Shown: piece after piece, positions 29,574-35,048 of the stretch | Layout: the number at the start of each line of letters is the position of its first letter | Position numbering within the stretch: position 1 is the first letter of the stretch | NCBI GenBank assembly: GCA_024336345.1 | Contig: JANFOG010000009.1 | Span: 1,798,001-1,862,000, forward strand | DNA length: 64,000 nucleotides | Source: Mariannaea sp. PMI_226 | Lineage: Eukaryota; Ascomycota; Sordariomycetes; Hypocreales; Nectriaceae | Reading direction: 5' to 3' | Position numbers and translations under genes: made by a program | The notes under the pieces: generated by a model | The model's input: only the letters and a program-made list of their open reading frames with translations | The model's database searches: none | What the model was told of the DNA's origin: nothing

Positions 29574-32075
29574 ATGTCGGTATCAGAATCTTCGCTTCCC
29601 ATTGCTCACCTGGTCGACTCCTACGTAACACAAGCAACATGGAAAAGCTCTGAGAACGCGAACTCGACATACTCCCACCAGGGGCTCATGCAGTACGTTT
29701 CCCAGCACATCATATCAGAGTACTGGCTTGAGAAGATATACACGCAAGAAATTCGACGCTGCAACGACGAGAACCGCTTCCATATCCACGACCTCGGCTT
29801 TTTGAGTGCCTACTGTTCTGGTTGGAGCATCGAAGACATCCTGCTGCAAGGTTTCGGTGGAGTCGAGAATAAGATCCAGTGCCGGCCACCCAAACACCTC
29901 AACACTGCGCTCAACCAGACCGTAAACTTCCTCTTCACTCTCCAGGGAGAGCTCGCCGGTGCTCAGGCATTATCCAACTTTGACACGTATCTTGCCCCAT
30001 TCATTCGGCATGACGGTTTGTCCTACGTTGACGTCTTCAAGTACGTCCAAAGTTTCGTCTACTCCCTCAACGTGCCCACGCGAAGTGGCTTTCAGTCCCC
30101 TTTCACCAATGTTTCACTCGACCTCATTTGCCCCAAGAACCTCCAGTATCAGCCCGTTATCATTGGCGGGGAACCGCACACAACGTGGCTCTACGGCGAT
30201 TTCCAAGAGGAGATGGATATGCTCAACAAGGCATTTGCAGAAATAATGATTCAGGGCGATGGTAATGGAAACATATTTTCTTTTCCCATCCCGACATATA
30301 ACCTATGTGAAGGGTTCGATTGGGAATCGCCTCGCTGGGAGCCCATCTGGAGCATGACGGCAAAGTATGGCATCCCTTACTTCGCCAACTTCATCAATAG
30401 CGACTTGGACCCTGAGGACTTCCGGTCTATGTGCTGCCGTCTACGTCTTGATATCAGCAAGCTGCATTGCAAAGTCGGTGGCCAGTACGGTGCGAGTCCG
30501 CTGACCGGTTCTATCGGCGTTGTGACGGTGAACCTCCCGAACCTAGCCCTCCGTTCGCAGGGGTCCAAGGAAACGTTCCTCAGGGAGCTAACAGCGACAC
30601 TGCGAGTAGCCAAGGATGCGCTCGAAATTAAGCGGAAAGTGATTAACGAAAACACCAGCCTGTATCCGTATGCAGCGCATTACCTATCCGTCACAAAGCA
30701 TCGAACGGGATCACATTGGACCAACCATTTCAGTACAATTGGCATCAACGGCATGAATGAAGCTCTTGTGAATCTCCTTGGTGAAGGCGTTGCTACGCAC
30801 AAGGACTTCGCCTTAGAGATCCTTGAGTTTATTAAGGAACACCTGCAAGAATTCCAGAATGAAACAGGTAACTTATACAACTTGGAGGCCACCCCGGCGG
30901 AGAGTACATGCTACAAGCTTGCCCGTCGGGACAAGGAACTATTCCCAGGTTGCAGCATTCCGACTTTCTACACGAATTCGACCATGCTTCCTGTAGACAC
31001 AACTGAGGACCTTTTTGAGGCTCTCAACCACCAAGAGGAGCTCCAGTGTTCTTATACTGGTGGCACCGTCTTCCACGCCTTTCTGGGCGAACGGTTGTCA
31101 AATTGGAAACTGGCTCGAGACCTCGTCAAGCTGCTCACTTCGCGTTACCGCGTTCCCTACTTGACCCTCACACCGACCTTTAGCATCTGCAAGACGCATG
31201 GCTATGTCACTGGAGAGCAGCCACAGTGTCCCAAGTGCGCACAAGAGTGCCTGGTCTACTCAAGAATTGTCGGTTACTTCCGCCCAACACGAGACTGGAA
31301 CAAAGGAAAAGCGACTGAGTTCACGATGAGAAAGACTTACCGATATCCTCTTGAGTTGTCAACAGGCGATGAGAACCATGCTCGATTAGAGGAATTGGAG
31401 TCCCAGGTCGAAGCGATTGATGATCTCCCCCTTGCCGGCTATACGAAATTAACGTTGAGCGATTGGCCAGGCAAGATGCAAGCCTCGATCATGTTTACAT
31501 CGCGATGCAATTTGTCATGCCCATGGTGCCATAATGGGCCTCTTGTACGTGGCGAATGCGACGACTATACTATTGTAGATGTCTTCCGCCACATCACGTC
31601 GACGCCGCACAAATCGCTTGTCATCTCGGGTGGCGAGCCTACTATCCACAAGGGCCTGGTTCCATTTATGCGTATTCTGAGAGAAGCAGGTGTGAGTGTC
31701 AAGCTTGACTCCAACGGCACATCACCTATGACGCTGCGCCGTGTGTTTTCTGAGAAGCTCGTTGACTTCGTGGCCATGGATATCAAGTGTGCGTTAGAGA
31801 ACTACAAGAAGGTGACAGGCCGCAAAGTCAGCCCTAAGGCTTTGCAAACAAGCATCACTCTCATCAAGGAGAGTGGGGTGCCGCATGAATTCCGCACCAC
31901 GGTCGTGCCGTCGCTCGTAGACATTGAGGATTTGTTTGAGGCTAAGCGACTGGCTGGTGGTGCACTCACAATGCAACGTTTCCGCAAAGGCGAGAGTAAT
32001 CTACACGAAAGTTTCCGTGATTGTGAGGAACACACAGAACACGAATTCAAAGCCATCGTTTCTCAGGTAGCATAG
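29574..32075 (+). CDS. nrdD-nrdG: Class III anaerobic ribonucleotide reductase fused to radical-SAM activase (NrdD-NrdG)
   Basis: An intronless frame of 833 aa. Residues about 28-590 are a class III ribonucleoside-triphosphate reductase, which makes dNTP precursors by glycyl-radical chemistry without O2. Key features are ENANSTYSHQGL and FHIHDLGFLSAYCSGWS near the N-terminus; SMCCRLRLD (Cys287/288, thiyl-radical region); GASPLTGSIGVVTVNLP; YNLEATPAES; four Cys for the C-terminal zinc site (539, 552, 555, 559); and the glycyl-radical motif RIVGYF (Gly567) followed by DWNKGKATEF. After a linker, residues about 618-833 are an NrdG2-like radical-SAM activase with TKLTLSDWPGK, the CX3CX2C cluster motif CNLSCPWC (645, 649, 652), and GGEP (686-689). 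In bacteria these are usually two genes. There is no room for an N-terminal ATP-cone. Lack of introns and the prokaryotic families point to horizontal acquisition. No targeting peptide is evident, so cytosol is assumed. Confidence 0.95.
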   Translation: MSVSESSLPIAHLVDSYVTQATWKSSENANSTYSHQGLMQYVSQHIISEYWLEKIYTQEIRRCNDENRFHIHDLGFLSAYCSGWSIEDILLQGFGGVENKIQCRPPKHLNTALNQTVNFLFTLQGELAGAQALSNFDTYLAPFIRHDGLSYVDVFKYVQSFVYSLNVPTRSGFQSPFTNVSLDLICPKNLQYQPVIIGGEPHTTWLYGDFQEEMDMLNKAFAEIMIQGDGNGNIFSFPIPTYNLCEGFDWESPRWEPIWSMTAKYGIPYFANFINSDLDPEDFRSMCCRLRLDISKLHCKVGGQYGASPLTGSIGVVTVNLPNLALRSQGSKETFLRELTATLRVAKDALEIKRKVINENTSLYPYAAHYLSVTKHRTGSHWTNHFSTIGINGMNEALVNLLGEGVATHKDFALEILEFIKEHLQEFQNETGNLYNLEATPAESTCYKLARRDKELFPGCSIPTFYTNSTMLPVDTTEDLFEALNHQEELQCSYTGGTVFHAFLGERLSNWKLARDLVKLLTSRYRVPYLTLTPTFSICKTHGYVTGEQPQCPKCAQECLVYSRIVGYFRPTRDWNKGKATEFTMRKTYRYPLELSTGDENHARLEELESQVEAIDDLPLAGYTKLTLSDWPGKMQASIMFTSRCNLSCPWCHNGPLVRGECDDYTIVDVFRHITSTPHKSLVISGGEPTIHKGLVPFMRILREAGVSVKLDSNGTSPMTLRRVFSEKLVDFVAMDIKCALENYKKVTGRKVSPKALQTSITLIKESGVPHEFRTTVVPSLVDIEDLFEAKRLAGGALTMQRFRKGESNLHESFRDCEEHTEHEFKAIVSQVA

Positions 32076-33299: not shown

Positions 33300-35048
33300 A
33301 TGCCGTCAGCTTATGACAATGCAATCAAGCTTGGAGAGTATGTATTCTTGAGACTCCATCAGCTCGGAATCCGTTCCATCTTTGGCGTGCCAGGAGATTA
33401 CAACCTCCGGCTATTGGACTTTGTCGAGCCCGCTGGTTTGCACTGGGTAGGCAACTGCAATGAGCTGAATGCTGCTTATGCAGCTGACGGATACGCAAGG
33501 ATTAAAGGCGTTGGCGCTCTGGTCACGACATTTGGTGTGGGTGAACTCTCAGCCATCAATGGAATCGCCGGCGCATATGCTGAAAAAGCACCTATTATAC
33601 ACCTTGTTGGCACGCCTTCGCGAGAGCTTCAAGACGCGCGAATATCAGTGCATCATACGTTTGCTGATGGAGAATACCGTCGCTTCGCTGCCGCACATGC
33701 AAACGTTACGATTGCGCAGTCCAATCTTACGGACGCAATAACTGCCCCGGATGAGGTGGATCGCATCATGGAACAGGCGCTACACCATCAGCGACCAGTT
33801 TATCTTGAGATCCCAGATGACATGGTGGACGCTGAAGTGTCTGCAGCCAATTTGCACCGAAGGCCCAAACTTGGACTTTTACCTCCACCAGAGACAGAGA
33901 ATGAGCTAGCTAAAATCGGCCTTGTCCTTGAACGTTTATACACGGCCAAACAACCCGTAATTTTAGTTGATGGAGAGAGCAGAGGTCTCAACATCCTGGC
34001 CGAAATTGATGCACTCATCAAAACAACAAGTTGGCCGACATGGACGACAATCTTCGGAAAGGGTCTCATTGACGAGCGTCAAGTAAATGTCCACGGCACT
34101 TATAGGGACAAACATGGCCCTGAGAAGGCATCAGCATACATCAAGTCTTCCGACTTGATCCTACATTTTGGACCACATATCAGTGACACCAACTCCCATG
34201 GGTTCACCACAGTTCCCAACGACGCGGTCACAATAGCGTTTTCCCAGAGTACCGTTAGAATTCGCGGTGTCATTCATCGCAATCTGCCAACCCAACGATT
34301 TCTTTCCACCCTGTTGAGTTCACTCGACACAAATCGACTCACTCGAGTTGAAGGGCCCAAAAAGCACGTTCGATCACAAATGCAGCTTGAGAGCTCGAGC
34401 CCCTTGGTGCAGCAGCACTTCTGGGGTGTTGTCAACTCAATCATCCGCCCTGGAGATATCGTTTTAGCGGAAACAGGAACCGCAGCGTATGGAAGCCGCA
34501 CTTTTGAACTGCCATCAAATACGCGACTCCTCACCGCTGTGACGTGGCTCTCAATTGGATACATGCTACCAGCAGCTCTTGGTGCGGGTATCGCACAGCG
34601 AGAACTACTTCAAAGTGGAGAATCGAATGGAGCAGAAAAGTCCACCAGAGAACGAGTGATTCTATTCATCGGCGATGGTAGCTTGCAGATGACAGTACAA
34701 GAACTGAGTACCATTATCAAGGAAAGGCTCAATATCACCATCTTCGTTCTCAACAACAACGGCTATACTATTGAACGAGTAATTCATGGTAGGAAGCAGA
34801 GTTACAATGACATTGCAAATTGGAACCATCAGTGGGCACTGCGCCTTTTTGGTCTAGACGACGAAACTGCCGCCCAAAATTACTTCAGGGCAAGAACTTG
34901 GGGAGAGCTTGAGACTACACTCAAGTCTCGGCAGGTACAAGACGGAGATGGAGTGGTTTTAGCAGAGGTCTATCTTGGGCAAGAGGATTGCATTGATGGT
35001 CTTCGAGATCTGCTGCACAAGCAAGTATCTAAAGAGACAAAACTCTAG
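33300..35048 (+). CDS. Pyruvate decarboxylase-type ThDP enzyme
   Basis: An intronless gene of 582 aa, close to the usual PDC length of about 560-590. Family features in order: FGVPGDYNLRLLDF; the ThDP-activating Glu55 in GNCNELNAAYAADGYAR; the paired histidines His118-His119 in SVHHTFADG; the cofactor motif GDGSLQMTVQE (458 on) ending in NNNGYTIE with Glu492. All residues needed for decarboxylating 2-keto acids are present. The most likely reaction is pyruvate to acetaldehyde and CO2 in the cytosol, the first step of ethanol fermentation; indole- or phenylpyruvate decarboxylase is the main alternative, because these share the fold and length. It follows the class III reductase in the same orientation with a 1.2 kb gap, so it has its own promoter. 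Confidence 0.9.
   Translation: MPSAYDNAIKLGEYVFLRLHQLGIRSIFGVPGDYNLRLLDFVEPAGLHWVGNCNELNAAYAADGYARIKGVGALVTTFGVGELSAINGIAGAYAEKAPIIHLVGTPSRELQDARISVHHTFADGEYRRFAAAHANVTIAQSNLTDAITAPDEVDRIMEQALHHQRPVYLEIPDDMVDAEVSAANLHRRPKLGLLPPPETENELAKIGLVLERLYTAKQPVILVDGESRGLNILAEIDALIKTTSWPTWTTIFGKGLIDERQVNVHGTYRDKHGPEKASAYIKSSDLILHFGPHISDTNSHGFTTVPNDAVTIAFSQSTVRIRGVIHRNLPTQRFLSTLLSSLDTNRLTRVEGPKKHVRSQMQLESSSPLVQQHFWGVVNSIIRPGDIVLAETGTAAYGSRTFELPSNTRLLTAVTWLSIGYMLPAALGAGIAQRELLQSGESNGAEKSTRERVILFIGDGSLQMTVQELSTIIKERLNITIFVLNNNGYTIERVIHGRKQSYNDIANWNHQWALRLFGLDDETAAQNYFRARTWGELETTLKSRQVQDGDGVVLAEVYLGQEDCIDGLRDLLHKQVSKETKL

What the first reader, a model, noticed from the sequence alone, without database searches (positions are those of the whole stretch)
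29574..32075. Class III (anaerobic, glycyl-radical) ribonucleotide reductase encoded in a filamentous fungus
Seen: Cys287/288 in SMCCRLRLD, the four-Cys zinc site (539, 552, 555, 559), the glycyl-radical motif RIVGYF (Gly567) and NLEATPAES. Established: class III reductases are O2-sensitive enzymes of anaerobic bacteria and archaea, while fungi normally use the O2-dependent class I enzyme. Inference: this fungus can make deoxynucleotides without oxygen, which would remove a key barrier to anaerobic growth.
Basis: partly seen in the sequence, partly recalled or inferred. Interest (0 to 1): 0.92.

Follow-up and report, generated by a model that had tools for sequence, protein, structure and literature searches.

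The report
Fungal oxygen-free DNA-precursor enzyme, fused activase
This fungus carries a gene for an oxygen-free way of making DNA building blocks, with the enzyme and the helper that switches it on joined in one protein; such genes were described in a few fungi in 2010, and this is another member.

Summary
Confirmed and extended. The gene is a one-chain NrdD-NrdG fusion without an ATP-cone. Contamination is very unlikely: it lies inside a 2.04-Mb contig of a 42.2-Mb Nectriaceae-like genome, its codon usage fits its neighbours, and full-length homologues (67-84%) occur in named ascomycetes, others in Phytophthora and unnamed environmental sequences. The genome also has class I R1 and R2. The phenomenon is in print: Lundin et al. 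2010 (PMC3019208) described fused NrdDG in Fusarium, Schizosaccharomyces japonicus and Phytophthora. Added here: a longer list, a 57-row tree setting this group apart from prokaryotic NrdD, 0 fused genes in 63 prokaryotic loci, and an active site (MCCR, Glu438, Ser instead of Asn) that fits a redoxin or formate; NrdDs of the same active-site type on virus-catalogue contigs carry a fused glutaredoxin-like domain. Anaerobic function is likely but untested. Known kind, new member.

The parts
29574..32075 (+). NrdD-NrdG fusion gene, 833 aa, one uninterrupted ORF
29652..31340 (+). class III RNR catalytic domain (NrdD), residues 27-589; no ATP-cone found before it
   Evidence: Pfam NRDD full profile; Foldseek best matches 8p2s, 4u3e
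29814..29816 (+). Cys81, the conserved barrel-strand (betaA) cysteine
   Evidence: aligned to the P. copri residue that I count as Cys171 of PMC11226230 (passage; chain numbering runs 4 higher); 20 of 20 rows
30429..30440 (+). finger-loop motif M286-C287-C288-R289 (thiyl-radical cysteine region)
   Evidence: aligned to the CCR of T. maritima's SCCR; M286, C287, C288 in 20 of 20 rows
30885..30887 (+). Glu438 in NLEATPAES, at the position of T. maritima's Glu (putative proton donor)
   Evidence: aligned to FNIEQVPAE of T. maritima; 20 of 20 rows
31188..31238 (+). probable zinc site C539, H542, C552, C555
   Evidence: 20 of 20 rows each; ligand role inferred
31248..31250 (+).
   Evidence: Cys in 12 of 20 rows
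31263..31280 (+). glycyl-radical motif RIVGYF with Gly567
31341..31430 (+). linker, residues 590-619, length variable between relatives
   Evidence: alignment A1; pLDDT 45 over residues 591-600
31431..31949 (+). NrdG2-type radical-SAM activase domain, residues 620-792
   Evidence: TIGR02495 over cut-off; Foldseek match to PFL-activating enzyme 3c8f/3cb8
31506..31529 (+). [4Fe-4S] cluster motif C645-x3-C649-x2-C652

Best explanation
The gene encodes a self-contained anaerobic ribonucleoside-triphosphate reductase, NrdDG. The C-terminal radical-SAM domain binds a [4Fe-4S] cluster and S-adenosylmethionine and makes a 5'-deoxyadenosyl radical, which takes a hydrogen from Gly567 of the NrdD half. 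The glycyl radical then makes a thiyl radical on the finger-loop cysteine, and NTPs are reduced to dNTPs. The active site (Cys81, MCCR, Glu438, Ser313 instead of the formate-type Asn) suggests re-reduction by a thioredoxin or glutaredoxin, with formate not excluded. It most likely supplies dNTPs when oxygen is too low for the class I enzyme, which the genome also has. A eukaryote ancestor probably received a bacterial nrdD-nrdG pair; joining of the two frames and loss of the ATP-cone followed; within Nectriaceae it now seems mostly inherited vertically. Shown: domains, residues, fusion, distribution, tree. Inferred: chemistry, reductant, use in anoxia.
For: Domains over curated cut-offs. Catalytic residues checked. 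The AlphaFold model matches class III RNR chains in the 36 best rows (8p2s E 4.8e-26) and then PFL-activating enzyme (3c8f E 4.4e-9). 66 of the 120 listed homologues (the window's own protein counted) carry both domains and none of the 66 lists an ATP-cone, while 44 of the 48 rows P0073-P0120 do. Tree of 57 rows: 28 fused rows plus the S. japonicus singleton on one side of a branch with support 100/100. The activase tree agrees, weakly (18 rows, SH-aLRT 81). 0 of 63 prokaryotic loci have both halves in one ORF; 55 of 63 show a separate nrdG ORF on the same strand, 54 of them downstream; 8 show none in the stretch held. Redoxin reading: 15 of 78 NrdD ORFs on virus-catalogue contigs, all 15 with MCCR and Glu, carry a C-terminal glutaredoxin-like domain (Pfam PF00462 over cut-off in the 2 tested).
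Against: No expression, activity or growth data were available. PFL was not found, so a formate supply in anoxia is doubtful. Other oxygen needs seem unmet: the hopene-cyclase matches are far below cut-off and probably the lanosterol synthase (weak test, no control genome passed that cut-off either), and NirK is absent above cut-off. The model is only moderate (mean pLDDT 76.9, pTM 0.62), so domain docking was not judged. The redoxin-fused relatives were found with patterns that contain MCCR (80 of 159 loci kept), so MCCR is enriched by construction; some are near-duplicates (L111, L112). In the larger quick tree the eukaryote rows without the intein rows had support of only 24.
Confidence: 0.8

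Rival explanations
1. Functional class III RNR whose main role is not growth in full anoxia but repair or survival: dNTPs for DNA repair or mitochondrial DNA in hypoxic parts of an otherwise aerobic fungus.
For: Class I R1 and R2 are kept. No PFL, NirK or hopene-type cyclase above cut-off, so full anaerobic growth is not obviously provided for.
Against: S. japonicus, which by Lundin 2010 has a fused and a singleton copy (the singleton is P0057), grows anaerobically (passage in PMC8520639). Sterols can be taken up from outside (recalled).
Confidence: 0.25
2. Bacterial contamination or mis-join in the assembly.
For: The nearest prokaryotic proteins are about 55% identical in the NrdD half, so a bacterial origin of the family is likely. 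GC3 of the gene (0.604) is slightly above that of 12 neighbouring ORFs (0.429-0.591).
Against: Closest named relatives are fungal (Neonectria 84%, over 99% of the length), several on multi-megabase contigs. No prokaryotic locus of 63 has the fusion. GC and codon preference are within the neighbours' range. The host's R1 and the NrdDG both point to Nectriaceae.
Confidence: 0.01
3. A decaying remnant with no activity.
For: Patchy occurrence: genera named in the R1 list (Trichoderma, Beauveria, Claviceps, Verticillium, Pyricularia) are not among the named NrdDG rows. Some relatives are short or lack the activase domain (P0047, P0055; P0071 is annotated partial).
Against: Open over 833 codons, with the catalytic residues identical in 20 of 20 aligned rows.
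Confidence: 0.04

Closest known systems
Fused eukaryotic NrdDG of Lundin et al. 2010 (Fusarium, S. japonicus, Phytophthora; PMC3019208, passages read)
   Same: Single ORF with NrdD then NrdG; eukaryotes form one group that falls among bacterial NrdD in their tree
   Different: The species cannot be matched to their list; the lack of the ATP-cone in the listed fused rows, the finger-loop type and the longer list of carriers are added here
Bacterial NrdD + NrdG2 pairs (e.g. Patescibacteria L012, Chlamydiota L014, Clostridia L005; PRK08270-type NrdD)
   Same: NrdD half mostly 50-55% identical, MCCR and the Glu kept in 57 of 61 ORFs, nrdG usually next to nrdD
   Different: Two genes; NrdD ORF about 100 codons longer at the N-terminus (ATP-cone in 44 of 48 listed bacterial-type proteins); NrdG half only about 30-42% identical
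Formate-type NrdD (E. coli, T4, Prevotella copri)
   Same: Fold, radical mechanism, glycyl loop
   Different: Those have a single-Cys MGCR loop and, in P. copri, Asn435 where this has MCCR and Ser313; P. copri has Leu at the Glu438 position
Thioredoxin-type NrdD (Neisseria bacilliformis, T. maritima)
   Same: Double-cysteine finger loop and the Glu
   Different: Those lack the Met before the cysteines (SCCR); PMC9669993 (passage) says double-Cys enzymes with the Met could use formate or thioredoxin

Membership tests
Class III ribonucleotide reductase (NrdD) | Full-length NRDD domain over curated cut-off | tested here: met
Class III ribonucleotide reductase (NrdD) | Finger-loop cysteine(s) and conserved strand cysteine | tested here: met
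   C287/C288 and C81
Class III ribonucleotide reductase (NrdD) | Glycyl-radical loop RxxGY | tested here: met
   RIVGY with G567
   C539, C552, C555 and H542 in 20 of 20 rows, C559 in 12 of 20; a CxxH/CxxC site is likelier than four cysteines
Class III ribonucleotide reductase (NrdD) | Barrel fold of class III | tested here: met
   the 36 best Foldseek rows are class III RNR chains, on a model of moderate quality
Class III ribonucleotide reductase (NrdD) | Glycyl radical by EPR and NTP reduction under anoxia | not testable with these tools
   needs protein
NrdG activase (radical SAM) | CxxxCxxC cluster motif, GGE motif, NrdG2 model over cut-off | tested here: met
   C645/C649/C652 and G686-G687-E688 invariant; 153 bits vs 131
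Eukaryotic NrdDG fusion (Lundin 2010) | Both domains in one ORF and placement with other eukaryotic NrdDG | tested here: met
Formate-dependent subtype (NrdD1) | MGCR loop with Asn in the sixth strand, no Glu | tested here: not met
   MCCR, Ser313, Glu438 (alignment)
Thioredoxin-only subtype (SCCR plus Glu) | Double Cys and Glu without the Met | tested here: not met
   Met286 present; criteria from PMC9669993 passage
ATP-cone-regulated NrdD | N-terminal ATP-cone | tested here: not met
   no PF03477 match; only 26 residues precede the NRDD domain

The most novel reading that the evidence does not exclude
A broad, old eukaryotic family of self-activating, ATP-cone-free class III reductases exists in fungi, oomycetes and several environmental, probably protist, lineages. 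It works with the cell's own thioredoxin or glutaredoxin, and ascomycetes pass it on vertically and now and then horizontally as a one-gene module for replicating DNA without oxygen.
Probability: 0.5. Interest if true: 0.6.

Novelty: new member of a known kind. Interest (0 to 1): 0.35.

Why it matters
Class I reductases need O2 to make their radical, so DNA synthesis is one of the steps that tie most fungi to oxygen. A single gene holding both enzyme and activase shows how that tie could be cut by one transfer, makes a clean genetic test possible (one deletion), and offers a one-polypeptide system for studying glycyl-radical installation. No biochemical study of a fungal NrdDG turned up in the searches made here, which cover only open-licence PMC papers.

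Tried and rejected
Contamination was tested and judged very unlikely; reads were not available. A prokaryotic origin of the fusion was tested: 0 of 63 GTDB loci have a single ORF with both halves; 8 of the 63 show no nrdG ORF in the stretch held, some because the contig ends. The one 'fused' flag in the virus catalogue (L118) turned out to be NrdD plus a glutaredoxin-like domain, not NrdG. Other anaerobic genes were looked for: PFL none (3 of 14 control genomes ring); NirK only 6 matches of at most 34.4 bits against a cut-off of 296.3; hopene cyclase 134 and 39 bits against 431 (no control genome passed the cut-off, so a weak test). DHO_dh gave 2 matches that I did not classify. The neighbour at 33300-35048 is a TPP-dependent decarboxylase of the pyruvate/indolepyruvate type (far below the indolepyruvate equivalog cut-off) with paralogues in the genome; whether the two genes stay together in other fungi could not be tested, as I had no search over other fungal genomes. 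A search of the virus catalogue with an intein-bearing relative (P0067) gave one relative, on a contig already seen. No telomere-like array was apparent at either contig end (scattered hexamers only). Wei et al. 2014 was not held. A pattern count over the P rows matched nothing and was dropped; only its 20-row column counts are used. Papers: only passages returned by the find function were read, of PMC3019208, PMC2795772, PMC11226230, PMC4390871, PMC4493059, PMC9669993, PMC9531940, PMC6712302, PMC8520639, PMC11550330 and PMC12662201; all others were seen as search listings.

Tree detail: the 125-row quick tree put the 64 eukaryote-type rows on one side of a branch with support of only 24; together with the 3 intein rows the support was 100. 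It had long rows (P0064, P0072). The 57-row careful tree, chosen by hand without P0064, P0072 and near-duplicates, gives 97/90 and 100/100. The root is not inferred in either. The eukaryote label of unnamed environmental rows is my inference. ORFs are counted stop to stop, on the strand of the match only, so a negative distance does not prove overlapping genes.

Full report
What is there. The ORF at 29574-32075 (+) is 833 codons long and uninterrupted. Residues 27-589 match the Pfam NRDD family over its whole length with 599.6 bits, and NCBIfam's NrdD model at 485 bits against a cut-off of 326. Residues 620-792 match NrdG2, the anaerobic RNR activating protein, at 153 bits against a cut-off of 131. 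In 20 aligned rows they are identical in all, except C559, which is Cys in only 12. His542 is identical in all 20. The zinc site is therefore more likely C539-x2-H542 / C552-x2-C555 than four cysteines; that is inference from conservation.

Is it really fungal? The window lies at 1,798,001-1,862,000 of a 2,039,783-base contig in a 42.2-Mb genome of 25 contigs. The genome has one NRDD match, one class I R1 match and two adjacent R2 matches, which I read as two exons of one gene. Neighbouring ORFs include an AA9 polysaccharide monooxygenase, a calpain-like protease, a NACHT-type protein and an S28 peptidase. The gene's GC (0.511; neighbours 0.481-0.557) and fit to the codon usage of 12 other window ORFs (-1.121 per codon; others -1.058 to -1.225) lie within the neighbours' range; GC3 (0.604) is slightly above it (0.429-0.591). 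The nearest named R1 proteins are from Dactylonectria, Cylindrodendrum, Neonectria, Fusarium and Cosmosporella, and the nearest named NrdDG proteins from Neonectria (84%), Ilyonectria, Cosmosporella and Dactylonectria. These genera are Nectriaceae (recalled), so host and gene agree, which favours vertical descent within that family.

Who else has it. 66 of the 120 listed homologues, the window's own protein included, carry both domains. A second search with the activase part alone gave 56 hits and no NrdD-NrdG fusion that was not already listed. Named carriers of the fusion include Fusarium species, Clonostachys, Apiospora, Phaeoacremonium, Pleurostoma, Xylogone, Ascosphaera, Cirrosporium, two Brettanomyces, Grosmannia, Pleurotus ostreatoroseus and Phytophthora; S. 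japonicus appears with a singleton NrdD. PMC6712302 (passage) reports the NRDD domain as unique to anaerobic gut fungi among the fungi it compared; whether those are fused was not seen. Trichoderma, Beauveria, Claviceps, Verticillium and Pyricularia, which are in the R1 list, are not among the named NrdDG rows. Since named fungal rows outrank bacterial ones, this suggests patchy presence, though unnamed rows and the limits of the search leave room.

Where it came from. Of 63 loci in one scan of GTDB genomes, none has the two halves in one ORF; 55 have a NrdD end and a separate nrdG ORF, 54 with nrdG downstream; 8 show no nrdG ORF in the stretch held. In a careful tree of 57 rows, 28 fused rows (3 with an intein) and the S. 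japonicus singleton stand on one side of a branch with 100/100 support; without the intein rows, 97/90. In the larger quick tree the corresponding values are 100 and only 24. The activase halves also group together, weakly (81). No one bacterial group is the clear sister, so the donor stays open. 44 of the 48 rows P0073-P0120 list an ATP-cone, none of the 66 fused rows does. This is the picture of Lundin et al. 2010 (PMC3019208, passages), on more data: one bacterial source, fusion, spread among eukaryotes.

How it probably works. The AlphaFold model (mean pLDDT 76.9) matches class III RNR structures and then, far behind, PFL-activating enzyme. Alignment with solved chains, read with passages of PMC11226230 and PMC9669993, gives: strand cysteine C81; finger loop MCCR; Ser313 where the formate enzyme of P. 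copri has Asn435; Glu438 where T. maritima has a Glu and P. copri a Leu. PMC9669993 states that double-cysteine enzymes with the Met appear to hold the parts for either formate or thioredoxin. PFL, a usual source of formate, was not found. In the virus catalogue, 15 of 78 NrdD ORFs, all 15 with MCCR and Glu, carry a C-terminal CPNC, CPKC or CHNC domain, glutaredoxin by Pfam in the two tested. Such natural fusions support a redoxin as partner of this active-site type. The scan that found them used RSMCCRLR as a pattern and kept 80 of 159 loci, so the shared MCCR is no independent evidence.

Why a fusion makes sense. The glycyl domain must flip out to meet the activase (PMC12662201 passage); tethering the activase right behind it would keep it at hand, and one gene needs one promoter, as Lundin et al. 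suggested. [quoted passage not shown] inference only.

What it does not show. Nothing here shows expression or use in anoxia. The genome keeps the aerobic enzyme, and bypasses of other oxygen-dependent steps were not found: hopene-cyclase matches are far below cut-off and NirK is absent above cut-off.

Verdict. A real, intact, fungal NrdDG; a new member of a kind in print since 2010. Interest is moderate, for the kind is known and no functional study turned up.

Noticed in passing
GTDB loci L010, L011, L026, L033, L034, L035, L038, L039, L043, L046, L049, L055, L056, L057, L058, L059, L065, L066: Split NrdD: in 18 of 63 loci the NrdD ORF stops just after the zinc site (window residue about 555-558) and the glycyl-radical end (EVYSRIVGYLRP-like) is a separate small ORF of 45-129 codons, stop to stop; 36 loci were intact, 9 undecided. 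Of 17 small ORFs printed, 13 are in another frame than NrdD; the 7 printed from Nealsonbacteria have their own CxxC..CxxC. Found in Nealson-, Dojka-, Falkow- and Kuenenbacteria, an Aminicenantes MAG and unnamed bacteria, so unlikely to be sequencing error. One paper search listed no report of it. It would be a class III RNR with a detachable radical subunit.
   Followed up: partly
IMG/VR loci L097, L102, L103, L105, L107, L108, L111, L112, L113, L114, L117, L118, L119, L120, L121: NrdD with a C-terminal glutaredoxin/thioredoxin-like domain in one ORF, 15 of 78 NrdD ORFs examined; Pfam glutaredoxin confirmed in the 2 tested.
   Followed up: partly
proteins P0065-P0070 (metagenome, 947-993 aa): NrdDG fusions with an insert; in the two printed (P0065, P0067) it lies between the two finger-loop cysteines (RSMC / CRLRLD). 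Pfam lists an intein domain in P0066-P0070, not in P0065. The three rows used branch outside the other fused rows. Host unknown.
   Followed up: partly
P0010 Grosmannia clavigera, P0020 Apiospora, P0007 Pleurotus ostreatoroseus: Rows inside Nectriaceae/Fusarium branches of the NrdDG tree although the named species are from other orders (98/93 with Neonectria, 100/99 with Fusarium, 88/85 for the third): fungus-to-fungus transfer or contaminated assemblies.
   Followed up: no
33300-35048 (+): Uninterrupted TPP-dependent decarboxylase (pyruvate/indolepyruvate decarboxylase type), 50% identical to its best paralogue in the genome, downstream of NrdDG on the same strand; a fermentation-type enzyme beside an anaerobic RNR may be chance.
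   Followed up: partly
window residues 539-559 of the NrdDG protein: C539, H542, C552 and C555 are identical in 20 of 20 rows, C559 in 12 of 20, so the zinc site is probably CxxH/CxxC.
   Followed up: partly
PMC8520639: The passage calls the horizontally acquired anaerobic reductase of S. japonicus 'Class-I'; by Lundin 2010 class III seems meant.
   Followed up: no
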